From Bacteroidota bacterium (lineage in GTDB: Bacteria; Bacteroidota; Bacteroidia; Chitinophagales; Saprospiraceae): a stretch of DNA of 64,000 nucleotides. Both the position numbers and the translations under genes were made by a program. Of the stretch, positions 49,632 through 64,000 are shown one piece after another (positions within the stretch are counted from its first letter, which is position 1; every line of letters begins with the position of its first letter). The DNA is taken from contig JAKOVW010000054.1 in NCBI GenBank assembly GCA_029781865.1, forward strand, positions 1 through 64,000, in the 5' to 3' direction. The notes below the pieces were generated by a model. The model made no database searches and was not told the DNA's origin. It saw only the letters and a program-made list of their open reading frames with translations.

Positions 49632-51173
49632 TTACTCACCGCCATCTGCCTTTGCTAAATTCACAACATAAACCGCCACTTTTTTACCGGTGTCGAGTCC
49701 TGCCTCAATATCAAAGCGGTAATGTATTCCTCCATAACTTCTCGACTCGGCTGCTTCTCTTGCATACGCGTTGAACAAACCATTCTCAGATGGGAAGAAA
49801 TGACTCAACACATCCGCTGCTGCTGCAGAAAAAGTGGAATGCCCAGAAGTATAACTAGGAAAGTTGGGTGTTCCCAAAATGGTTTTAAATCCTGGTATGG
49901 TTTGAATCGGACGTGGATAGTGATAATAATACTTAGCATCCCAGCATGCAATACCTGCATCCATTTCGGCCATATTTAAGTAAGCCAAAGTTCTCGCCGA
50001 GCGCAAGGGGTTTAATTTATATTGGATTAACTCATTACAGGCAAACCGATTCCAATGTCCGGGTGGAGTATACGTTCCTAATCCATCAGACCAAAAATTG
50101 GCAATCTTTCTTTGATCTTCTGTAATATTATCCAATCGTTGTTTCAATTCATCTGCCGCAGCATTGAATTCAGCAGAACCAGGCTTTGGTGGTGCCGGAG
50201 GTCTCACATCAACGATATTGGTTACTGCCCAGGTTTTTACTTTACCGAAATAAGGAGTAATACCAACAGGTCGTGGAGGAGTCTCCAGATTGCTCCAGGA
50301 CCATCCAAAGGTATTTTGCGCCAGCGTTTTTAATGAATCTGAAATTGCTTTAGGTGTTTGCGCTGCTCCCATTCCATCTGTCTTTGCTCTGGCCAAAAAA
50401 ACTTTTGCTACCTCAGCACCTAAAGTTTTGCCAGCATCAATATCGCTTTGTACATTGGCACCGGACCACAAAAATGCATTGATACATTCATCTGCTTTTT
50501 TCGCAAGAAAATCTTTTTCCAAAGGAAACATAGCTGATAAGATATCGCGGGATACCGCTGCGATCACCGCACCATCTGATGGATATGATGGTAAATTGGA
50601 TTTCGGAAACAATTGCGCTATGCTTGCATCAGTTACACCCGGCTCCGGTCTGTTGAATTTGTATTTATAATGCCAGCATGCAATAAGTGCATCAAACTGA
50701 GCCGTAGCTAAATAAGCGAATGCACGACAGGAATAAGGTGGATGTGCAAATGGAAATAAAGGATATTTGTCCGGTGTCGCAGAACTTGGAGCAGGATAGC
50801 TACCATCTGCATTCGGTGCAGGTGCCAGATTGTATTTTGCAGACAGTTGTCTGGATATTTCATTCCAGCGAATGATAGGATTATTGGACCAATATTCAAC
50901 ACTTGCTTTTTGACTTGCTGTAACAGCAGCAGTTGTTGCTTTTAAAGCAGCAAGCTCTGTTTTATATTCAGCAGAACTTACATCCGTTGGATCAGGAATG
51001 GCTATTTGCTCATTGCTGCTCAACAAAATAGGTTTCCAGTTGCCTCCCGTTGCATCAGTATTTGTCCAGGAATATACCGGATAAGATACATACTGAGGTA
51101 CATCTTCCGTACAAGAAGCAATGAAAAGAAGACTAATTATAATAAGTATAAAAATTGAATTATGACTTTTCAT
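49632..51173 (-). CDS. Vanadium haloperoxidase/PAP2-superfamily lipoprotein with internal duplication
   Basis: 513 residues. Lipobox FIASC (Cys21). The C-terminal half carries the complete vanadate/phosphate site: Lys414 and Arg421 (KYYYHYPRP), SGH at 443-445 (NFPSYTSGHSTFSA), Arg478 and His484 (SRSYGGIH). The N-terminal half (about 148-265) repeats the same layout (FAYLATAQFDALIACW, NLPSYPSDG) but lacks the His and Arg ligands, so it looks like a decayed second copy. It is either a vanadium-dependent haloperoxidase or an acid phosphatase. It follows a beta-barrel gene by 12 bases. Confidence 0.85.
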   Translation of the reverse strand: MKSHNSIFILIIISLLFIASCTEDVPQYVSYPVYSWTNTDATGGNWKPILLSSNEQIAIPDPTDVSSAEYKTELAALKATTAAVTASQKASVEYWSNNPIIRWNEISRQLSAKYNLAPAPNADGSYPAPSSATPDKYPLFPFAHPPYSCRAFAYLATAQFDALIACWHYKYKFNRPEPGVTDASIAQLFPKSNLPSYPSDGAVIAAVSRDILSAMFPLEKDFLAKKADECINAFLWSGANVQSDIDAGKTLGAEVAKVFLARAKTDGMGAAQTPKAISDSLKTLAQNTFGWSWSNLETPPRPVGITPYFGKVKTWAVTNIVDVRPPAPPKPGSAEFNAAADELKQRLDNITEDQRKIANFWSDGLGTYTPPGHWNRFACNELIQYKLNPLRSARTLAYLNMAEMDAGIACWDAKYYYHYPRPIQTIPGFKTILGTPNFPSYTSGHSTFSAAAADVLSHFFPSENGLFNAYAREAAESRSYGGIHYRFDIEAGLDTGKKVAVYVVNLAKADGGE

Positions 51174-51185
51174 GATGAATCGATT

Positions 51186-52483: not shown

Positions 52484-53383
52484 TTATTGCTCAGGCATTG
52501 TTGGTTTAACCAAAGTGAATACCCTGGATAGATTAAAACCAAAATGAATTTGTCCTTTGGACCAGGAGTCTGTTGACTCTCCAATAAACCCTTTGTAGAT
52601 CATTTGGGTAGCATTGGTAAAATGAAGCTGGAATACATGCCCACCGGTTTCAATATCAAAACCAACAGATAGTGGATTTTCAAATCCATCCGCAAGCTGA
52701 TTTGGAAGCGTATAAAAATACTCCACGTTGATCGAAGTTCTTTTTGTTAGTTTTTGACGGAATCCGATTCCTAAACTATAGACATCATTTTTTTCTGAAC
52801 TTGTTTTGACTAAATTCCGGTGAACCAGTGTAGGCATAATCTGAATAGATAAACCGTCACTGAATTTTCTCGCGATGAGTAATTGATTGACATAATACAT
52901 CCGGCTGGAAAAATAATTGGGCCTGGTCTGATCCGCAAATTTTGATGTTTTTAATTCAATAGATGAAAACCAGGACAATGACACCGGCATATTTTTCTTG
53001 CCGCTTGACTGTCTTAATATTTTGATTTTGGCAAAGCCATCTACAGCCTTATCAACAGTAGACCTGCCGAGGCCAATCATAATCCTGTTCGTCAGACCAT
53101 AGTCCGCTCCTATTCGTATCGTAGCACCATCCAATCCAAAAAATTCACTAACACCTCGGTCTATACTAGAAAACCGGTGTTGGATTTTGACATCCAAAAC
53201 CCCTTTGGCAGCATTTTCAATACTTTGACTGTTTATAATCCGCGTCGTTTTAAAAGTGGCAGACGTATATTGAGTGACCTCTTCCTCACCCAGCAAACTG
53301 AGCAGATCTGTTTGTGAAAAGGATCTTTGAATTCCACATACAGTCACCAATAAAATAATAAACAGGGATGGGAAGGACTTCAT
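52484..53383 (-). CDS. DUF5777-family beta-barrel protein
   Basis: 299 residues. A signal peptide ends near residue 23 (SFSQ). The barrel-like body contains the pattern I associate with DUF5777 (VLDVKIQHRFSSIDRGVSEF followed by GADYGLTNRIMIGLGRS) and ends in FGFNLSRVFTLVKP. It is the last gene of a five-gene operon, starting 1 base after the YceI stop. Presumably in the outer membrane; function unknown. Confidence 0.78.
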   Translation of the reverse strand: MKSFPSLFIILLVTVCGIQRSFSQTDLLSLLGEEEVTQYTSATFKTTRIINSQSIENAAKGVLDVKIQHRFSSIDRGVSEFFGLDGATIRIGADYGLTNRIMIGLGRSTVDKAVDGFAKIKILRQSSGKKNMPVSLSWFSSIELKTSKFADQTRPNYFSSRMYYVNQLLIARKFSDGLSIQIMPTLVHRNLVKTSSEKNDVYSLGIGFRQKLTKRTSINVEYFYTLPNQLADGFENPLSVGFDIETGGHVFQLHFTNATQMIYKGFIGESTDSWSKGQIHFGFNLSRVFTLVKPTMPEQ

Positions 53384-53384
53384 A

Positions 53385-53960
53385 TTATTGACTTAGAACA
53401 TTATAATCAACCTTAACCGTGATTTCTACATCATTTGAAATATTATCTTTTACAACAGCAGGTATCTCTATTTTATAATCACTACATTTAACGATAAACT
53501 TGGCATTGGCATGCAATCCTTTTGCATCGACTACCAGTTCAGCCGGAATCGTTATCGATTTGGTTACACCATGCATGATCATATCTCCGGTTACAGTAAC
53601 TTTATAAGTACCCGGGACAGCGAATTTCACATTACTGACATCATTGATCACTCCTTTAAATACCGTTTTAGGAAACTTACTGGATTCCATATAATTTTCA
53701 TTGAAATGTTCCTGCATCAAAGCCTTTTCAAAAACAAAGGCATTATTTAATGCTGCAAATTCCAATTTTCCGGTAGCAGCATCGATTACCGTTGTTGATG
53801 TTGAATTCACTCCTTCAATTTTCTCCATCGGAGAGTCAGAATGAAAACGGATCATCGCATTTTTTGAAAAATATTTTTGTCCATTTCCCTTTGTGATTAT
53901 AAGTACAAAAGCAAATACAATCAACAATGTCTTACCACTCATACGAATTAAATTTTTCAT
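53385..53960 (-). CDS. YceI-family lipid-binding protein
   Basis: 191 residues. A signal peptide ends near residue 27. The YceI lipocalin-like barrel shows ATGKLEFAALNNAFVFEKAL, SKFPKTVFKGVI and TGDMIMHGVTKSITIPAELV, the last being highly characteristic. Members bind polyisoprenoid-type lipids in the periplasm. Its ATG overlaps the stop of the OB-fold gene (ATGA, 53957-53960), and DUF5777 follows after 1 base. Confidence 0.9.
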   Translation of the reverse strand: MKNLIRMSGKTLLIVFAFVLIITKGNGQKYFSKNAMIRFHSDSPMEKIEGVNSTSTTVIDAATGKLEFAALNNAFVFEKALMQEHFNENYMESSKFPKTVFKGVINDVSNVKFAVPGTYKVTVTGDMIMHGVTKSITIPAELVVDAKGLHANAKFIVKCSDYKIEIPAVVKDNISNDVEITVKVDYNVLSQ

Positions 53961-54373
53961 AGTTTATATACTGTTTGATTTAATACAATATCCATTAGTT
54001 TACCAGAACAAATTCCCTGGATTTTGACATTCATTCCTTTCTTCACTTTATCGCCCACCTCGTTAATAAACCGACTATCCATTTCACACTGAATGTTACT
54101 TAATGGGCTTCCGGTTGAAACAATCCAGATCGTTTGATTGCCCACTTTCTGAATGTCGAGTAATTGCCCTTCGGTCTCGATTATTTTATTCAGATATTTT
54201 GCCAATGCAGCATTTTCATCTGATTCAAAATCTCCCAAAAGAGTTGCCGCTGAAACTATAAAATCCGCTTTCTTATCACTAACATTGACCGGACCTTTGT
54301 TATACATTCTGTATGCATAAAATCCTGCAGCTGCTACAATGATCAGAACAGCTATTGCAATATTTCTTTTCAT
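53957..54373 (-). CDS. Membrane-anchored OB-fold protein (tRNA_anti-like)
   Basis: 138 residues. One N-terminal hydrophobic helix (residues 4-21) anchors a small periplasmic domain of about 100 residues with the OB-like pattern EGQLLDIQKVGNQTIWIVST, then VKKGMNVKIQGICSG. This matches the tRNA_anti-like family seen next to YceI genes. It lies 4 bases after the short cytochrome-like gene and overlaps YceI. Confidence 0.78.
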   Translation of the reverse strand: MKRNIAIAVLIIVAAAGFYAYRMYNKGPVNVSDKKADFIVSAATLLGDFESDENAALAKYLNKIIETEGQLLDIQKVGNQTIWIVSTGSPLSNIQCEMDSRFINEVGDKVKKGMNVKIQGICSGKLMDIVLNQTVYKL

Positions 54374-54377
54374 AACG

Positions 54378-54743
54378 TTAATTATTTTTTTTACCCTGGT
54401 TTATCCAGGCTTCAATTGTATTGATTTCACAATCGGGTAATTTATCTCCACCCTGAGGCATCGCTATAACCCCGGACACCCTTTTTATGGCGCCAAGAAA
54501 ATTTTGACTTGCAATAATAGCAACTAAATCCGTGTATCCTTCGAATTCATAAACAGAAACTGTATTATTGTTACCATGGCAACTGTAACATCTGTTTTGC
54601 AAAATCGGATTAATATCGTTAGTGTAACTAACATTCAGGGTATCACAAGTTGAAGTTATGGGATATAGTTTATCCTCGGAGTCATAATAACAGGAGCTCA
54701 AAGAAAGAATAAATAAACCCAGTACACAAAGTTTGACATTCAT
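54378..54743 (-). CDS. Small cytochrome-c-like lipoprotein, one heme site
   Basis: 121 residues from the ATG at 54743, preferred over an in-frame upstream start at 54779 because it begins the lipoprotein signal (LCVLGLFILSLSSC) and leaves a 5-base gap to the previous gene. A single CxxCH heme site (NRCYSCHGN) lies near residue 60, and MPQGGDKLPDCEINTIEAWI resembles the Met-ligand and C-terminal helix region. An electron-transfer or heme-binding role in the envelope is likely. Confidence 0.82.
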   Translation of the reverse strand: MNVKLCVLGLFILSLSSCYYDSEDKLYPITSTCDTLNVSYTNDINPILQNRCYSCHGNNNTVSVYEFEGYTDLVAIIASQNFLGAIKRVSGVIAMPQGGDKLPDCEINTIEAWINQGKKNN

Positions 54744-54748
54744 AAAGA

Positions 54749-55498
54749 TCAGTTGTTTAATATTCCCTGCCTGATCCATGCTTCTATCAAATGAATTGAA
54801 CAGTCACTGAGCTTTTGACCACCGTTGGGCATTTTCACACAACCCGGATTCCAATTGATTACGCAAGTCAATTTGCCGCTTAAAGCGTAATTCCGTATTT
54901 CTGCATAACTGCTCAATGATACATTTCCCAAAGGAGCTGTTCCGGAATGACAAACCTTGCAATTGTTGCTGATAATTGGAAATACCGATTTGATAAAACT
55001 TACAGCAACCGTATCACAGGTTTTTGGCAAATCACAGGTCTCATTCTTTGCACCCTGCAAAATCCAGTCTGTTATTAGTTTTTTCTGATCAGCTGTCAAT
55101 GCATTCATAGGAGGGGGCGGCATTCTGTCTTTTAAATCACTGTTCGTGATCATTTTATACAGTTTGCTACCCCCTGGATTAAAGGCCTTAATGCCGCCAG
55201 TATTGACGACATTCACAAAACTATTCAAAACTACACCGTCTTCTTTGGAAACAGGATCATGACATCCCGAAAGCGCACAACTAGATAGCAAAATGGGTAA
55301 AATCTGGTTGTCGAAATAAATCACATTCGGATCACAGGGCTTGCTGTTGGGATCGACTACATTGGTATCAACCGGATTGCCGTTGGAATCCACCGGATCC
55401 GTTGCAATAATAACAGGATCGTGTACGCATCCACCCAGGTAAACCCCCATGGCACTCACCACCAACAAAAATACCGTTAACCGAATGATCAATTTCAT
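54749..55498 (-). CDS. Cytochrome-c-like lipoprotein with two heme-type motifs
   Basis: 249 residues. Lipobox YLGGC (Cys24). The first motif is CALSGCH (C-x4-C-H, Cys74/Cys79/His80) and the second a regular CKVCH (Cys180/Cys183/His184). Each is followed by a Met-containing segment (RMPPPPMNALTADQKKLITD; VKMPNGGQKLSDCSIHLIEA), so the protein is two tandem cytochrome-like domains. The longer spacing of the first motif is found in related Bacteroidota proteins but makes heme attachment there less certain. It opens the operon ending with DUF5777. Confidence 0.82.
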   Translation of the reverse strand: MKLIIRLTVFLLVVSAMGVYLGGCVHDPVIIATDPVDSNGNPVDTNVVDPNSKPCDPNVIYFDNQILPILLSSCALSGCHDPVSKEDGVVLNSFVNVVNTGGIKAFNPGGSKLYKMITNSDLKDRMPPPPMNALTADQKKLITDWILQGAKNETCDLPKTCDTVAVSFIKSVFPIISNNCKVCHSGTAPLGNVSLSSYAEIRNYALSGKLTCVINWNPGCVKMPNGGQKLSDCSIHLIEAWIRQGILNN

Positions 55499-55782: not shown

Positions 55783-57612
55783 TCAATCTTTTCGGATTAC
55801 GGACACCGGCATATTTTCATCGTAATCACCGGCAATCATAGGGGTTTGAACATTCCCGGTATATTGACGGACATTGGTATAGACATAATTAAAAAGCTCT
55901 TTAACAGTTACAATCCGGTCGCGATTCATGTCAGCCTTTCCTTTCAAACCATCAATGAGAAAATGCGAAAACACTCCCTGATGTAATCCACCGTCCTCCA
56001 GCGAAAACTCCTTACTCTTGGAAGACATGATAAATGCTGTTCCACCGTTTGCTTTTTCAAGTTCATCGTAATAGTAAAGAAGTGAATTGGAGAAAGCACC
56101 TTTCGCTGCGAGCAGGCTACCGGAATTGCATGCATCCAGATAACAAATCTTATATTTCGCATGAGACTTGTTTATGATTTCTTTTACTTCATCGTGTTTA
56201 AGAAGATTCGAAAATCCATCATAATCGATAGGAATAAAAGTACCTTCCAAACCATGGCCTGAATAATACATCATAACGACATCATTCTCGTCCGCACGCA
56301 TGAAAATCTGGTTCAAAGCCTGTAATATATTATTACGTGTTGCTTCTTCGTCGATGAGAATTTTTATCTGTTCGTCTTTGAGCGCTCCGCCTTCTGGGCT
56401 TTTCAGAAATGCATAAATCTTGTAGGCATCATCATCAGAGTACTTCAGGGTAGGCATGTGTTCATACCGTGCAATTCCAACGATCACTGCCCAAATTTTT
56501 ACTTCCGGATTTTTATCAACAGGGACATTATTGTCAAATATGAATTCTTTTTTGCGTTGTAATTCCTTCACCGATTTACCGTGATCCCAAATGGCCCCGT
56601 AGGTCAGTCCTGAACTGAAATACATAATCCCTTCTCCATTTGGAGCATGATGATCCCACATTCCTTCATAGCGATCCCCATTCACATAATAGCAAACACC
56701 CTTACCTTTGGGTTCTCCATCTACAAATTCGCCGACATATTTTGATCCATCACCATAGGTAAACATGCCTTTGCCTTTTGCACAAAAAATGGCATTGCAA
56801 TTCGGCAAATTAATTCCACCCAACTGAACACCTGTATCATCTGCATTTGGAATGACAACCTGTTCCCTTTTGCTGGGTTTTAAAATTGAATGTTCAACTT
56901 TGAATTTTTCGTCAGGTTTTTCCTGGACGACTTCATTTGTCTTTTCTTTAGGTTTAATGAAATCAAGATGCATACCTACATTTTCCTGCTTGTTGTTCAA
57001 ACTATCTGAACCGGATACTGATGCAGTTTCATCCAGAATCTTAATTAGTTTATCATTTTTCCACTGTGCAGCGATTGTCTTACCGCTCACATCTCTGAAT
57101 TCCCCATAGCCATCTTTCTTACTGGCTTTCCATAGCCCCTTATAATAGCTTCCCGATTTGTAGTACAGGCTTCCTTCTCCGTCAAATCTTGAATCCACAA
57201 AATTTCCTTCGTAACGTTCACCCGTGGCAAAATAATAGGCTCCTTTTCCATTTGGTTTCCCGTTTTTCCAATTTCCGGAATACCGGTCTCCGGATCTGAA
57301 GTCCATACTCCCCTGGCCTTCCATATTATCCGATTTAAAATTCCCGGTATAAACATCTCCATTGGAAAAAAATAGCTTTCCTTCCCCCTGTTTTAGATCA
57401 TTGATCCACTCGCCGATATATTTATTGCCGTTAGCGTAGTTGTATATTCCTTTCCCGTTTTTCCTGCCTGACTTGAACTCCCCGCTATAACGGCTGCCAT
57501 TACTGTATCTATAGGTTCCAAATCCATTGGAGCAGGTCCCTTTAATACATCCCTGAGCTTCAATGGATAATACATATAAACTCAGAGCTACCCCCAAAAT
57601 AATTGCTTTCAT
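55783..57612 (-). CDS. MORN-repeat protein with C-terminal caspase domain
   Basis: 609 residues. Signal peptide to about residue 20. Seven or so MORN repeats (residues 32-185, e.g. GRKNGKGIYNYANGNKYIGE), a polar linker, two more MORN repeats (281-345), then a caspase (peptidase C14) domain from about 372 with WAVIVGIARYE, catalytic His453 in YYSGHG and Cys495 in YLDACNSG. A DMNRDRIVTVKELFNYV segment at 561-577 resembles a calcium-binding loop. MORN repeats commonly bind lipids or proteins and may position the protease at a membrane. It differs in architecture from the two other caspases in the window. Confidence 0.9.
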   Translation of the reverse strand: MKAIILGVALSLYVLSIEAQGCIKGTCSNGFGTYRYSNGSRYSGEFKSGRKNGKGIYNYANGNKYIGEWINDLKQGEGKLFFSNGDVYTGNFKSDNMEGQGSMDFRSGDRYSGNWKNGKPNGKGAYYFATGERYEGNFVDSRFDGEGSLYYKSGSYYKGLWKASKKDGYGEFRDVSGKTIAAQWKNDKLIKILDETASVSGSDSLNNKQENVGMHLDFIKPKEKTNEVVQEKPDEKFKVEHSILKPSKREQVVIPNADDTGVQLGGINLPNCNAIFCAKGKGMFTYGDGSKYVGEFVDGEPKGKGVCYYVNGDRYEGMWDHHAPNGEGIMYFSSGLTYGAIWDHGKSVKELQRKKEFIFDNNVPVDKNPEVKIWAVIVGIARYEHMPTLKYSDDDAYKIYAFLKSPEGGALKDEQIKILIDEEATRNNILQALNQIFMRADENDVVMMYYSGHGLEGTFIPIDYDGFSNLLKHDEVKEIINKSHAKYKICYLDACNSGSLLAAKGAFSNSLLYYYDELEKANGGTAFIMSSKSKEFSLEDGGLHQGVFSHFLIDGLKGKADMNRDRIVTVKELFNYVYTNVRQYTGNVQTPMIAGDYDENMPVSVIRKD

Positions 57613-59935: not shown

Positions 59936-61297
59936 TTATTTCTTCAAAATTAAGTCATTAAAATGTCTTCCAATATTCGTGCCTTCTTCCAGACCGAGCT
60001 CCAGATCCTGGCGATATTGAGTGCCTGAATAAATTCGACTCCAGCTTGCTTCATTCGCCAGTTCATAAAAAGAGTTAAACGTTCTTGGCGCGTGAAAAAA
60101 ATCAGGAGTTGCATTTGAAGGTGCAGTGATTGCATAGTTATAGCCAAAATAGGAAGCAAGAACTTCCATGGTTGCTCCAAACTGCATTGCATGTTCGCTT
60201 GGAAATGCAGGATATGAAGTATTGCTAAATGTACTCAAGGGATTTTGTGGAGGAATCTTGTAATTCGGATCAATAAAATACCGGATAAACGTTTCAGGTC
60301 TGAGCAATATAAACTTATATTTAGATCTCCAGCAAGTAACAAAAGCATCATGTGCTGTTATGCCAATTTTAGACAACACTTCAGCTGCTATTGCAAGATT
60401 TGCATTTTCTATCTTCAACACTTTTGCAGCAATAGCGATAGAATGCCCTGCTGGTGTCGATGATATACCTGAATCCTCATTCCAAAATTCTAATACCCAT
60501 TTTGTTACATAATCAGTTGGAGCCTTAGTATAAGCCTCCAAAGCCTGAGAATAAAATCCCGATTTCGCATCTGTTGAAAATTCAAACGTTGGTTTATACT
60601 TCATGATAAATTCATCATTCACATTGGATGACAAAAAAGGTCTGACCTCTCCCCAATATGCTTGTAATGGATTTGCCTGTTTTGGATCTGTAGATTCCCA
60701 ATGTCCGGGAGTGTTTGGAATTGTATAATCAGGAAAATTATGCAAATAAGCTTCATCCTGTCCGTCCGTTACAGAAAAATTATAAATAGCCAATCCTGCT
60801 TTTTTACCGTAATCAATGGATCGTAACCTGGTATTCATTTCTATTCCACTATTCTGATTTAAATACTCTTTTTCTAATGAATCAATTTTTTTAAACCGGT
60901 CACCTGGAGCCAGTTTGAATTGTTCCTTTAAAAGGACCGCCATGCATGCGTTGACTACTAATTCCCAATTATATTCTTTTCCATTCTCAGCAACAGGCAT
61001 TGATTGTCCGGTGTATCCGTTGATCAAACCAGAATAAGACAAGTGGTCCTTTATGCCAGCCGCAATGGATTCATACATTGCCAGTGCAGCGTATGCATAT
61101 GCTCTTGCTGCAACCGGGGAGGAATAACCGGGAGTATATTGCACCAATTCCCTTTGCAGATCTATCCAATTTAAAGCAACATCCGCTTTAAATTCCGATG
61201 CCTGATTGATATTTAAAACAGAATCCGCATTGTCCTTATGGCATGATCCGAGACTAAGGATGAAAAGAATAGAAAAAAAGATGTTCGTGTTTTTCAT
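59936..61297 (-). CDS. Haloperoxidase/PAP2-like lipoprotein with substituted active-site histidine
   Basis: 453 residues. Lipobox SLGSC (Cys19). The vanadium haloperoxidase/PAP2 core keeps Lys326 and Arg333 (KYKFILLRP), PSEH at 366-369 (His369 kept, Gly replaced by Glu) and Arg421, but the residue equivalent to the vanadate-binding or nucleophilic His is Gln427 (SRIYSGTQ). It shares long stretches with the next two genes (WELVVNACM, TPAGHS, AAEVLSKIG). Catalysis by the usual mechanism is doubtful; it may be a binding protein. First of three tandem paralogues by coordinate, last by transcription. Confidence 0.82.
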   Translation of the reverse strand: MKNTNIFFSILFILSLGSCHKDNADSVLNINQASEFKADVALNWIDLQRELVQYTPGYSSPVAARAYAYAALAMYESIAAGIKDHLSYSGLINGYTGQSMPVAENGKEYNWELVVNACMAVLLKEQFKLAPGDRFKKIDSLEKEYLNQNSGIEMNTRLRSIDYGKKAGLAIYNFSVTDGQDEAYLHNFPDYTIPNTPGHWESTDPKQANPLQAYWGEVRPFLSSNVNDEFIMKYKPTFEFSTDAKSGFYSQALEAYTKAPTDYVTKWVLEFWNEDSGISSTPAGHSIAIAAKVLKIENANLAIAAEVLSKIGITAHDAFVTCWRSKYKFILLRPETFIRYFIDPNYKIPPQNPLSTFSNTSYPAFPSEHAMQFGATMEVLASYFGYNYAITAPSNATPDFFHAPRTFNSFYELANEASWSRIYSGTQYRQDLELGLEEGTNIGRHFNDLILKK

Positions 61298-61428
61298 AAT
61301 TATTTTTTTAAATGTTCAATAATCAATTTGACTTTACCACAATGCATTTCCACATAAGTGAAGAACCAAATAATATCAATCTACTCTCTTCCTGTTCATT
61401 TTTCCATTATAAGGAAAATTTATTCCTG

Positions 61429-62766
61429 CTATTTTTTCAAATCAATATAAACAAAATTTCTTCCGATCAGGTTACCCTGATAAATGCTGAGTTCGATGGA
61501 TCCCCAGAGATTAAATCCTCCGAGCAACCTCGAATGAATCTGCTCATACAATAATTGGTACAACGTACTGAAAGATCTTGGCTGACATTCTGCATTCACC
61601 ATCATTTTTTTATTATCATTACTCACAGTAACGGAATAGTTTGAACCATATAGAACATCCATTGCAGAAACTACAGCAGCGATCTGCACTGCATGAGAAC
61701 AGGGAAATTCAGGCGACGGATCCGTTTCCAAAAGGGTAGTATAATTCGGATCTATATATTGTTTAATATAGGTCTCCGGCCGGATCCGATTGTACGTATA
61801 TTTAATTTTCCAGGAGGCTACATAAGCATCATGCAAGGCCATTCCGATTCGCGAATAAACTTCAGCCGCTTTTGCAAGATTCTCATTTTCGTTTTTGAGA
61901 ATGGAGGTCAAAATAGAAAGCGAATGACCAGCAGGGGTTGAGGTTTCTCCATCTTCATCATTCCAGAATTTAACTACATTCATGGTTTCCAGATCCTGAT
62001 TGCTGCTCTGATTATAAACTTCATTCGCCTGAGAATAATACAAACTAGCCGGATCAGTAGAAAAATCTTGCGGAATAAATATCGGATTATACGCTGTATC
62101 AACAGAAAGAAAAGGCCTGACCGATCCCCAATAAGGCTGAAGTGGCCGGTGGTTATTCATATTGGTCGATTTCCAACTCCAGGGTGAATTTGGAAGATTA
62201 TAGTCGGGAAAATTATTGAGATGTGCATTTTCCTGACCATCGGATTTAGCATAGTTAAATATCGCATCTGCCACTTGCCTTCCATAATTTACTGATCTTA
62301 AAATTTCAGTCTGATCCGAACTTAAATTTTTATCCACATACTTTTTTTCAAGCAGAAAAATGGAATCAAGATTTGACAATGAAGCGGTTTTGAAAAATTG
62401 CTTCATTACACTTGACATACATGCATTGACTACTAATTCCCAATTGTAGCTTGCTGAAGTTTCAAGAACAGGAATACCTGTTCTTTGATATCCGTTAATC
62501 AATCCGGAATATGACTTGTTTTCCGGAATTCCAGCCACTACTGACTCGTACAAAGCTAAAGAGGTATAAGCGTATACTCTGGCTGCAACAGGAGCGGTAA
62601 AGCCGGGAGTTGTCCTGACCAGAAAACGTTCCAGGTTAATCCATTCAATGGCAACTTCAGATGAATACTCAGATGGCTGATGAATTGTGGAGTTACTGGT
62701 CTCTTTCCTGCAAGCTGAAAACAGAATATAGGGAATCAGTACAAAAAATAATTTTGATGGTTTCAT
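61429..62766 (-). CDS. Haloperoxidase/PAP2-like lipoprotein with substituted active-site histidine
   Basis: 445 residues. Lipobox LFSAC (Cys19). Lys322 and Arg329 (KYTYNRIRP) and His358 (FPCSH) are present, but the SG pair is Cys-Ser and the final His is Asn419 (SRLLGGFN). The fold is otherwise complete and colinear with both neighbours. The spacer to the next gene is 131 bases. Loss of the apical ligand in two adjacent paralogues suggests neofunctionalisation rather than random decay, since both frames are intact. Confidence 0.82.
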   Translation of the reverse strand: MKPSKLFFVLIPYILFSACRKETSNSTIHQPSEYSSEVAIEWINLERFLVRTTPGFTAPVAARVYAYTSLALYESVVAGIPENKSYSGLINGYQRTGIPVLETSASYNWELVVNACMSSVMKQFFKTASLSNLDSIFLLEKKYVDKNLSSDQTEILRSVNYGRQVADAIFNYAKSDGQENAHLNNFPDYNLPNSPWSWKSTNMNNHRPLQPYWGSVRPFLSVDTAYNPIFIPQDFSTDPASLYYSQANEVYNQSSNQDLETMNVVKFWNDEDGETSTPAGHSLSILTSILKNENENLAKAAEVYSRIGMALHDAYVASWKIKYTYNRIRPETYIKQYIDPNYTTLLETDPSPEFPCSHAVQIAAVVSAMDVLYGSNYSVTVSNDNKKMMVNAECQPRSFSTLYQLLYEQIHSRLLGGFNLWGSIELSIYQGNLIGRNFVYIDLKK

Positions 62767-62991
62767 GTGTTCTATTCAGTTATTTCAAAGATACTCTGAA
62801 ATGTCTTGTTTTACTGCAATTAGTAATTAGAATTTACTTAATTGAAGGATGCTATACAACAGGAATTTTGACTTAATGCCTTTATCCTGATTAAAGTCCA
62901 AACAGGGCAAAGTCACCACTATAGCTTGTTGAATAAGTAATCCATTGAAAACTCAGTCTCATTCCCTTTTCTTTTAAAATTAATTCCGGTG

Positions 62992-64000
62992 TTACTTCTT
63001 CAAAGGTATATTCACAATATTTCTACCGATAATTCTTCCCTGGTCTTTTCCTGATTCAATGGCCTGTCGAAAATGAATTCCTCCATAAAGCCTTGATATT
63101 GCAGCTTCATTGGTAATCTCTGAAAAAGAATTAAAAGTGCGTGGACTTCCATCTATATCTGTTCTGGATTCATGTGTATGATCGGTAAATCCATAATTAG
63201 AACCAAAATAATGTTCAAGAACTGTCATCGAAGCAGAAGTTTGCACTGAATGACCGCTGGTATGTTCAGGAAATGAAGGGGTTGTCAGTAAGGTGGTCCA
63301 GCTTGCATCGATGTTTTTATTGATATAGGTGATGGGTCTAAGTAAATTATAAACATATTTGGATTTCCAGCAAGAAATAAATGCATCGTGCACGGCGAGT
63401 CCAACTTTTGAAAACACTTCTGCAGCAATGGCCAGGTCAGATTTTTCCAATTGAAGTACTTGTCCAGCTATTGACATAGAATGTCCGGGTGGTGTTGCTG
63501 TAATTCCAGGGTCATCACTCCAGAATTTTGCAATTTTCTTCTGTTCATCTGTCAAATTTAGTCCGACAATGTATACTTCATTAGCCTGTAGATAGAAAAT
63601 GCTCTTAGGCTCTGTGGAATAAGCATTTGGTGGAAAGGTCTGAATCAATGCACTTGCGGTATCGCTGCCAACAAAAGGTCTGACCTGTCCCCAATAAGGT
63701 TGAAGCGGCTTTGGATTCATTGCGGAAGTTGGTTCCCATTTCCCCGGAACATCCGGAACGACATAATCCGGGAAATTTGAGCTGTATGCTTCGTCTTTAC
63801 CATCCGTTTTTGAATAATTGTAAACGGCTTCTGCAACAGCTCTTCCATAAGCTATAGATCGAGTTACGGTAGCAGTATCCGTTGAGTTGCTATTGATATA
63901 AGTTTGTTCGAGTTGGTCTATCAATGCTAAATTAGCTGCAGAGCTGGTTTTAAATTGGTTCCTCAGCATATAGGCCATGCATGCATTAGCTGATAATTCC
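62992..64000 (-). CDS. Haloperoxidase/PAP2-superfamily protein, partial at right edge
   Basis: The frame runs open to the end of the window: the residues before the first internal Met read ELSANAC, matching WELVVNAC in the two paralogues, so the true start and probable lipobox lie beyond 64000. The active site is intact: K...RP in KYVYNLLRP, FPEHTSGH and SRLYGGIH. It is thus the one of the three tandem copies likely to bind vanadate or phosphate. Expected full length is about 450 residues, of which roughly 335 are visible. Confidence 0.85.
   Translation of the reverse strand, partial: ELSANACMAYMLRNQFKTSSAANLALIDQLEQTYINSNSTDTATVTRSIAYGRAVAEAVYNYSKTDGKDEAYSSNFPDYVVPDVPGKWEPTSAMNPKPLQPYWGQVRPFVGSDTASALIQTFPPNAYSTEPKSIFYLQANEVYIVGLNLTDEQKKIAKFWSDDPGITATPPGHSMSIAGQVLQLEKSDLAIAAEVFSKVGLAVHDAFISCWKSKYVYNLLRPITYINKNIDASWTTLLTTPSFPEHTSGHSVQTSASMTVLEHYFGSNYGFTDHTHESRTDIDGSPRTFNSFSEITNEAAISRLYGGIHFRQAIESGKDQGRIIGRNIVNIPLKK

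What the first reader, a model, noticed from the sequence alone, without database searches (positions are those of the whole stretch)
59936..64000. Three tandem haloperoxidase paralogues, two lacking the vanadate-anchoring His
The rightmost copy has SRLYGGIH, while the others read SRIYSGTQ and SRLLGGFN; the SGH motif is also changed to SEH and CSH. The other conserved Lys/Arg residues and full length are kept. Paired losses beside an intact copy suggest pseudo-enzymes with a retained role, possibly as partners of the active one.
Basis: partly seen in the sequence, partly recalled or inferred. Interest (0 to 1): 0.6.

Follow-up and report, generated by a model that had tools for sequence, protein, structure and literature searches.

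The report
Haloperoxidase copies without their metal site
Next to an apparently intact vanadium-haloperoxidase gene, this bacterium carries two full-length copies that lost the residue that anchors vanadium and residues lining the halide pocket; similarly decayed copies are kept under strong selection in related genomes, so the protein has probably been given another job.

Summary
Copies A and B carry Gln427 and Asn419 where neighbouring copy C has the vanadate-ligating His. They keep the Lys, both Arg and the acid-base His, but read S-E-H and C-S-H for S-G-H. Models of A and B match the Zobellia iodoperoxidase fold (Z 45.5, 47.6). A and B are sisters; the syntenic place in a related genome holds one intact copy. 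A codon model rejects neutral drift, though synonymous sites are saturated. Gln/Asn do not mark a subfamily; the site decayed several times. Two findings go further. Decayed rows also lose pocket positions equivalent to VCPO Phe397 (kept in 170 of 170 intact, 2 of 26 decayed) and Pro47 (160 of 170, 1 of 26), though few events are independent. And two other decayed lineages occur once each in 8 of 9 genus genomes, with dN/dS 0.06-0.07 in the one pair measured; one always follows a thioredoxin-domain gene. 'Pseudo-enzyme with a retained role' is supported; 'partner of the active copy' is not. The new function is inferred, not shown.

The parts
59936..61297 (-). Copy A: haloperoxidase-fold protein, 453 aa, axial His replaced by Gln427, S-E-H
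   Evidence: ORF; alignment; model pLDDT 86.6; best structure 4cit Z 45.5, rmsd 2.4, 392 aligned; Pfam PAP2 24.5 bits, below its cut-off 27.2
60017..60019 (-). Codon CAA, Gln427 of A, at the vanadate-ligand position
   Evidence: sequence; alignment
60191..60199 (-). S-E-H of A (Ser367, Glu368, His369)
61429..62766 (-). Copy B: same family, 445 aa, axial His replaced by Asn419, C-S-H
   Evidence: ORF; alignment; model pLDDT 87.2; best structure 4cit Z 47.6, rmsd 2.2, 393 aligned; PAP2 21.9 bits, below cut-off
61510..61512 (-). Codon AAT, Asn419 of B, at the vanadate-ligand position
61693..61701 (-). C-S-H of B (Cys356, Ser357, His358)
62786..62819 (-). Bacteroidota-type promoter-like TTG-N-TATCTTTG, 19 nt before the start codon of B; one at the same spacing precedes C (outside the window); none in the 131-nt B-A gap, so B and A may share a transcript (inference)
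   Evidence: a match also in 56 of 2000 shuffles of this gap and 66 of 2000 for C's gap, so modest; the consensus is recalled
62992..64000 (-). Copy C: apparently intact vanadium haloperoxidase (start codon at contig position 64332, beyond the window), all seven vanadate-site residues
   Evidence: 4cit E 1.8e-58 for the in-window part; PAP2 33.8 bits, above cut-off
63073..63075 (-). Codon CAT, axial His of C
63250..63258 (-). S-G-H of C

Best explanation
A and B are tandem duplicates of a C-type vanadium haloperoxidase gene that no longer work as haloperoxidases and have been kept for another role. Shown by sequence and models: a tandem array with one intact copy, retained full length and predicted fold, loss of the axial His and change of the Ser-Gly pair, loss of the pocket positions equivalent to VCPO Pro47 and Phe397, rejection of neutral drift. 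Inferred: the proteins are exported lipoproteins (hydrophobic N-terminus followed by Cys); the remaining Lys, two Arg and His still form a positively charged pocket; without the axial His and the halide-site Phe that pocket holds an anionic ligand or runs a non-redox reaction instead of oxidising halide. In A the Glu in place of Gly may fill part of the oxyanion site. The same kind of change happened several times in the family, and two older decayed lineages (P1, P2) show that such proteins can be kept throughout a genus.
For: Motifs and conservation. Co-loss in 198 rows (170 intact, 26 decayed, 2 with gaps set aside): Phe397 equivalent kept in 170 of 170 intact and 2 of 26 decayed; Pro47 equivalent 160 of 170 and 1 of 26; Pro395 equivalent 170 of 170 and 8 of 26; VCPO numbers from the alignment. 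Pro47 and Phe397 are among the residues near the docked substrate of VCPO (passage in PMC10278073) and F397 is the suspected halide acceptor (figure legend in PMC10427571). Synteny with a single intact copy in G004. Sisters A+B (SH-aLRT 98; 100/97). Omega of 1 rejected (lnL lower by 13.6 for A alone, 18.3 for B alone, 91.5 for both). Folds. P1 and P2: YN00 dN/dS 0.063 and 0.072, against 0.031 for an intact paralogue of the same two genomes.
Against: No activity, ligand or expression data. Synonymous sites are saturated (branch lengths reach the bound), so omega values are not usable and constraint before the losses cannot be told from constraint after them; no close orthologue of A or B was found to measure it directly. 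The H496A mutant crystal of VCPO is listed with vanadate (table in PMC8407142), so losing the axial His need not empty the pocket. Only 5 independent decayed/intact contrasts exist on supported branches; Phe is lost in about 4 of 5 and never the other way, sign test p 0.125. Two decayed rows keep Phe (L137, L240), one keeps Pro (L240), and a fragment scored later (L313, S-C-H, rest of the site intact) also keeps Phe.
Confidence: 0.6

Rival explanations
1. A and B are still vanadium enzymes: the oxyanion pocket (Lys, two Arg, His) holds vanadate without the axial His and gives a weak or altered oxidation.
For: Lys, Arg, Arg and the acid-base His are kept in both; the H496A mutant crystal of VCPO is listed with VO4 (table in PMC8407142).
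Against: The halide-site Phe and pocket Pro are lost too, as are Gly403 in A and Ser402-Gly403 in B. [quoted passage not shown]
Confidence: 0.15
2. A and B are partners (heteromer subunits, chaperones or inhibitors) of the active copy C.
For: Direct adjacency on one strand; a decayed-intact tandem pair also in L147; similar promoter-like sites before B and C.
Against: P1 and P2, the older decayed lineages, have no other family member in the fetched stretches in 16 of 16 loci. Adjacency follows from tandem duplication alone. Zobellia VIPOs are listed as monomers. G004 has only the intact copy at the syntenic place.
Confidence: 0.12
3. A and B catalyse a non-redox reaction, as NapH3 does among haloperoxidase homologues.
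For: NapH3 has this fold (Z 29.4 to A and 31.3 to B) and the title of its entry names an alpha-hydroxyketone rearrangement; NapH3- or MarH2-like proteins are called close non-halogenase VHPO homologues (passage in PMC12871659). The acid-base His is kept in A and B.
Against: NapH3 keeps the axial-His position and loses the SGH His (alignment), the opposite pattern. I saw no obvious biosynthetic cluster in the ORFs beside C, but most of these were not put through family searches.
Confidence: 0.25
4. A and B are decaying duplicates on the way to becoming pseudogenes.
For: Long terminal branches (0.68 each against 0.34 for C); no row groups with A or B in the trees.
Against: No stops or frameshifts in about 450 codons each; omega of 1 rejected; 26 and 23 of 32 conserved positions kept.
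Confidence: 0.08

Closest known systems
Zobellia galactanivorans vanadium iodoperoxidases (PDB 4cit, 4usz)
   Same: Best solved match: C and A by sequence, A and B by fold, P1 and P2 by profile; similar length
   Different: A and B lack the axial His, the intact S-G pair, and the pocket Pro and Phe
NapH3 (PDB 8cxl), non-halogenating haloperoxidase homologue
   Same: Haloperoxidase fold with a decayed vanadate site
   Different: NapH3 loses the SGH His and keeps the axial position (alignment); A and B do the reverse
Curvularia inaequalis chloroperoxidase mutant H496A (PDB 1vnh)
   Same: Engineered loss of the same axial His; same fold (Z 30.4 to A, 31.9 to B)
   Different: One engineered change; A and B also changed pocket residues and the S-G pair
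PAP2 / class A acid phosphatases
   Same: Shared core fold (Z about 13, partial coverage)
   Different: Their phospho-His nucleophile is the residue missing in A and B (equivalence recalled)

Membership tests
Vanadium-dependent haloperoxidase (A and B) | Whole-chain haloperoxidase fold | tested here: met
   Predicted models, Z 45.5 and 47.6 to 4cit
Vanadium-dependent haloperoxidase (A and B) | Axial His ligand of vanadate (VCPO His496) | tested here: not met
   Gln427 in A, Asn419 in B
Vanadium-dependent haloperoxidase (A and B) | Lys353, Arg360, Arg490 equivalents | tested here: met
Vanadium-dependent haloperoxidase (A and B) | Ser402-Gly403-His404 equivalents | tested here: not met
   S-E-H in A, C-S-H in B; His kept in both, Ser in A only
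Vanadium-dependent haloperoxidase (A and B) | Halide-site Phe397 and pocket Pro47 equivalents | tested here: not met
   A Tyr and Ser, B Ser and Ala; intact rows 170 of 170 Phe and 160 of 170 Pro
Vanadium-dependent haloperoxidase (A and B) | Halide oxidation with H2O2 and vanadate | not testable with these tools
   needs protein
Vanadium-dependent haloperoxidase (C) | All seven vanadate-site residues, pocket Pro and Phe | tested here: met
Vanadium-dependent haloperoxidase (C) | Halide oxidation and halide preference | not testable with these tools
   needs protein
PAP2 phosphatase (A and B) | Nucleophilic His (same place as the axial His; recalled) | tested here: not met
   Gln or Asn there; PAP2 profile below cut-off for A and B
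NapH3-like non-halogenase (A and B) | SGH His lost, axial His position kept | tested here: not met
   A and B show the reverse

The most novel reading that the evidence does not exclude
This family contains a recurrent, selectively kept class of vanadium-free haloperoxidase-fold lipoproteins, recognisable by joint loss of the vanadate ligand set and of the Pro47/Phe397 pocket. One lineage (P2) has become tied to an exported thiol-disulfide protein (DUF4369-DUF5106-thioredoxin) throughout a genus, and A and B are a local instance of the same conversion, for example as anion- or oxidant-binding proteins that report on or buffer the product of the active paralogues.
Probability: 0.25. Interest if true: 0.7.

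Novelty: new variant of a known kind. Interest (0 to 1): 0.5.

Why it matters
Haloperoxidase homologues are easily taken for halogenating enzymes; here 26 of 196 scored rows (not a random sample) lack parts of the site. Two positions outside the ligand set (the pocket Phe and Pro) largely separate intact from decayed rows and offer a simple annotation test. A-B-C allows an intact enzyme to be compared with two decayed sisters of one cell, and P1/P2 are conserved proteins whose copies in this genome match no Pfam family.

Tried and rejected
Conserved Gln or Asn subfamilies at the axial site: rejected; when not His the residue is N in 5, Q in 5 and Y in 1 of 196 scored rows, needing at least 7 changes on the 149-row tree. 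A scan of named genomes with A alone found no relative; with the 7-row profile A1 it found 110, of which 80 were kept. Triplication after the split from G004: the trees put C with L014, but a clade A+B+C is not rejected (p-AU 0.368), so the time of duplication is open. Sigma-70 promoter scan: no excess (17 against a mean of 15.5 in shuffles; terminators 3 against 2.8). Neutral decay: rejected, with the caveat of saturated synonymous sites; the free model's omega of 4.2 on the A+B stem sits on a branch of length 0.05 and is not used. A preference for Q/N among one-step changes from His was considered and not used, as H to Q/N is a common exchange anyway. Whether Glu368 of A fills the vanadate site, or another His (B has His411 nearby in sequence) replaces the ligand, could not be measured: model coordinates are not in the Python box. 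In the library I saw titles and starts of abstracts for haloperoxidase with NapH3 (4 papers), Zobellia iodoperoxidase and mutant (34: 7), H496A (50: none), pseudoenzyme (51: 1), axial histidine and mutant (55: 2), Saprospiraceae (56: 3), His496 (64: 5), homolog/lack/histidine (72: 13, 12 listed), Bacteroidetes and paralog (80: 3), pseudoenzyme/PAP2 (83: 19, 8 listed); none of those listings describes natural haloperoxidase homologues without the axial His. Papers were not read whole, the Zobellia VIPO paper is not held, and most subscription papers are outside the library. PMC7564803, PMC13061610, PMC10301674 and on PMC11871015 gave nothing used here.
Full report
WHAT IS THERE. The right end of the window holds three same-strand genes read from right to left: C (62992 to beyond the window, start codon at contig position 64332), B (61429-62766) and A (59936-61297). 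Gaps are 225 nt (C-B) and 131 nt (B-A). Each starts with a hydrophobic stretch and a Cys (SCHKD, SACRK, HSCKE), which I read as lipoprotein signals (inference). C scores above the Pfam PAP2 cut-off, A and B below it. By sequence the nearest solved protein of C and A is the Zobellia vanadium iodoperoxidase 4cit/4usz (E 1.8e-58 for the in-window part of C, 7.3e-36 for A; B was not searched this way). AlphaFold2 models of A and B on alignments of 28 rows each reach mean pLDDT 86.6 and 87.2 and match 4cit at Z 45.5 (rmsd 2.4, 392 aligned) and 47.6 (rmsd 2.2, 393 aligned).

THE SITE. In VCPO vanadate is held by axial His496 and by hydrogen bonds from Lys353, Arg360, Ser402, His404 and Arg490 (passage in PMC10278073; Gly403 is recalled). 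The acid-base His is kept in both as well.

HOW THE COPIES AROSE. The own genome gave 12 matching stretches for C, from about 11 genes. Of 60 genomes, the own one included, 43 have a match to A at E <= 0.001. I fetched many but not all of the places listed; 103 distinct ORFs came out, two short ones (268 and 135 aa) were dropped and 101 aligned. A and B are sisters (SH-aLRT 98; 100/97 in the careful 37-row tree). C pairs with L014 of genome G004 (93; 97/71). A clade A+B+C is not rejected (p-AU 0.368). In G004 the syntenic place (seven neighbouring gene clusters shared) holds only the intact L014. Hence a tandem triplet with one intact member, either made in this lineage or reduced in G004. L014's protein is identical to one of a record titled Saprospiraceae bacterium MAG (L123).

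ARE A AND B DRIFTING? Both are full length. A codon model on A, B, C, L014, L015 (436 codon columns) loses 13.6 lnL if A's branch is set to omega 1, 18.3 for B, 91.5 for both. Branch lengths reach the bound, so synonymous sites are saturated and the omega estimates are not usable as rates; only the rejection of 1 is used. Of 32 positions conserved in at least 90% of 148 intact rows A lost 6 and B 9; 4 of the 6 and 6 of the 9 are ligand or pocket positions (C-frame positions 66, 358, 360, 365, 366, 426).

HOW COMMON IS DECAY, AND WHAT GOES WITH IT? With 80 loci from named genomes (seven duplicates of earlier rows and one short ORF set aside) and 23 further rows from the top hits of two profile searches (these lean towards P1/P2-like proteins), 198 rows were scored: 170 intact, 2 with gaps set aside, 26 decayed. 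The axial residue is His in 185, N in 5, Q in 5 and Y in 1 of 196. Three positions outside the ligand set go with decay: the Phe before the SGH loop (VCPO Phe397 by the alignment), 170 of 170 intact and 2 of 26 decayed; the Pro at VCPO Pro47, 160 of 170 (3 of the other 10 are gaps) and 1 of 26; the Pro at VCPO Pro395, 170 of 170 and 8 of 26. Pro47 and Phe397 are among residues near the docked substrate of VCPO (PMC10278073), and F397 is the suspected halide acceptor (PMC10427571 figure legend). Rows are not independent events: on a 149-row tree built without the motif columns the decayed state needs at least 7 changes, 5 on well-supported branches; in 5 independent contrasts the Phe is lost with decay in about 4 and never the other way, likewise the Pro, sign test p 0.125. 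One of the 26 (L240) differs only by Arg to Gly and keeps Phe and Pro, and L137 keeps Phe. Six rows scored afterwards add five intact ones with Pro and Phe, and a fragment with S-C-H that keeps Phe. So the pattern is strong in rows and consistent but small in events. Position 403 is acidic in A, L031 and all 8 P2 proteins (10 of 26); a carboxylate filling the oxyanion site is my guess.

OLDER DECAYED LINEAGES. Two clades, P1 and P2, occur once each in 8 genomes (G000-G007) of the 9 genus genomes; none was seen in G008, which is 66% complete. P1 keeps Lys353 and Arg360 but loses the SGH His and Arg490 (8 of 8); P2 has Asp/Glu at 403 and at 490 (8 of 8) and never the SGH His. With L224 (another genus of the family) and L137 (a record titled Bacteroidetes bacterium) they form an 18-row decayed clade (support 91). 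Between the close genomes G005 and G007 YN00 dN/dS is 0.063 (P1) and 0.072 (P2), against 0.031 for an intact paralogue and 0.027-0.196 for eight other genes of the P1 and P2 loci. P2 lies directly after a gene that in the own genome has DUF4369, DUF5106 and thioredoxin domains, clustering by BLAST in 8 of 8 genomes; a phosphoribosyltransferase and a carbamoyltransferase gene (read as pyrR, pyrB) lie upstream, with a glycosyltransferase between in 4 of 8. The thioredoxin-domain protein has matches in 38 of 40 genomes, own included, but in 22 of 22 fetched loci of other genera no haloperoxidase-like ORF lies within the 1.5-kb flanks, so P2 probably joined it in this genus. The own P1 and P2 proteins match no Pfam family at E <= 0.01, yet profiles of both find 4cit (E 4.1e-59 and 1.2e-52). 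Outside the genus profile scores fall from 716 or more to 396 bits (P2) and from 805 or more to 452 (P1) (248 genomes each, four of them of the genus among the hits).

READING. A and B are haloperoxidase homologues that have probably left the haloperoxidase function. What they do is inferred: a retained basic pocket that binds an anionic ligand or performs non-redox chemistry, as NapH3 does with a different site. A partner role is possible but rests on adjacency. A weak vanadium enzyme is not excluded, because the VCPO H496A crystal is listed with vanadate (PMC8407142). Of papers I saw passages, abstracts or search listings; none was read whole.

Noticed in passing
window 49635-51185 (-): A further full-length haloperoxidase paralogue with an intact site (SGH, SRSYGGIH) in the same window; PAP2 44.2 bits.
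   Followed up: partly
window 52484-55498 (-) and L062:2886-4374: Gene row DUF5777 barrel, YceI, tRNA_anti-like, a weak haem-binding match and PSCyt1 near that paralogue; a similar-looking trio lies about 3.7 kb from a haloperoxidase gene in G047 (similarity judged by eye).
   Followed up: no
window 55783-57612 (-): MORN-repeat protein with a C-terminal caspase domain.
   Followed up: no
L211:9182-12087 (-), own genome C79: P2: decayed haloperoxidase homologue directly after a DUF4369-DUF5106-thioredoxin gene, an arrangement found in 8 of 8 genus genomes that have P2.
   Followed up: partly
L147:1539-4296 (+): Jiulongibacter record with a decayed copy (K-R-S-I-E-Q-H) directly before an intact one, a tandem pair.
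   Followed up: partly
L112:169-3012 and L094:5087-7930: Frames of 948 codons that hold a haloperoxidase domain, about twice the usual length; the extra part was not examined.
   Followed up: no
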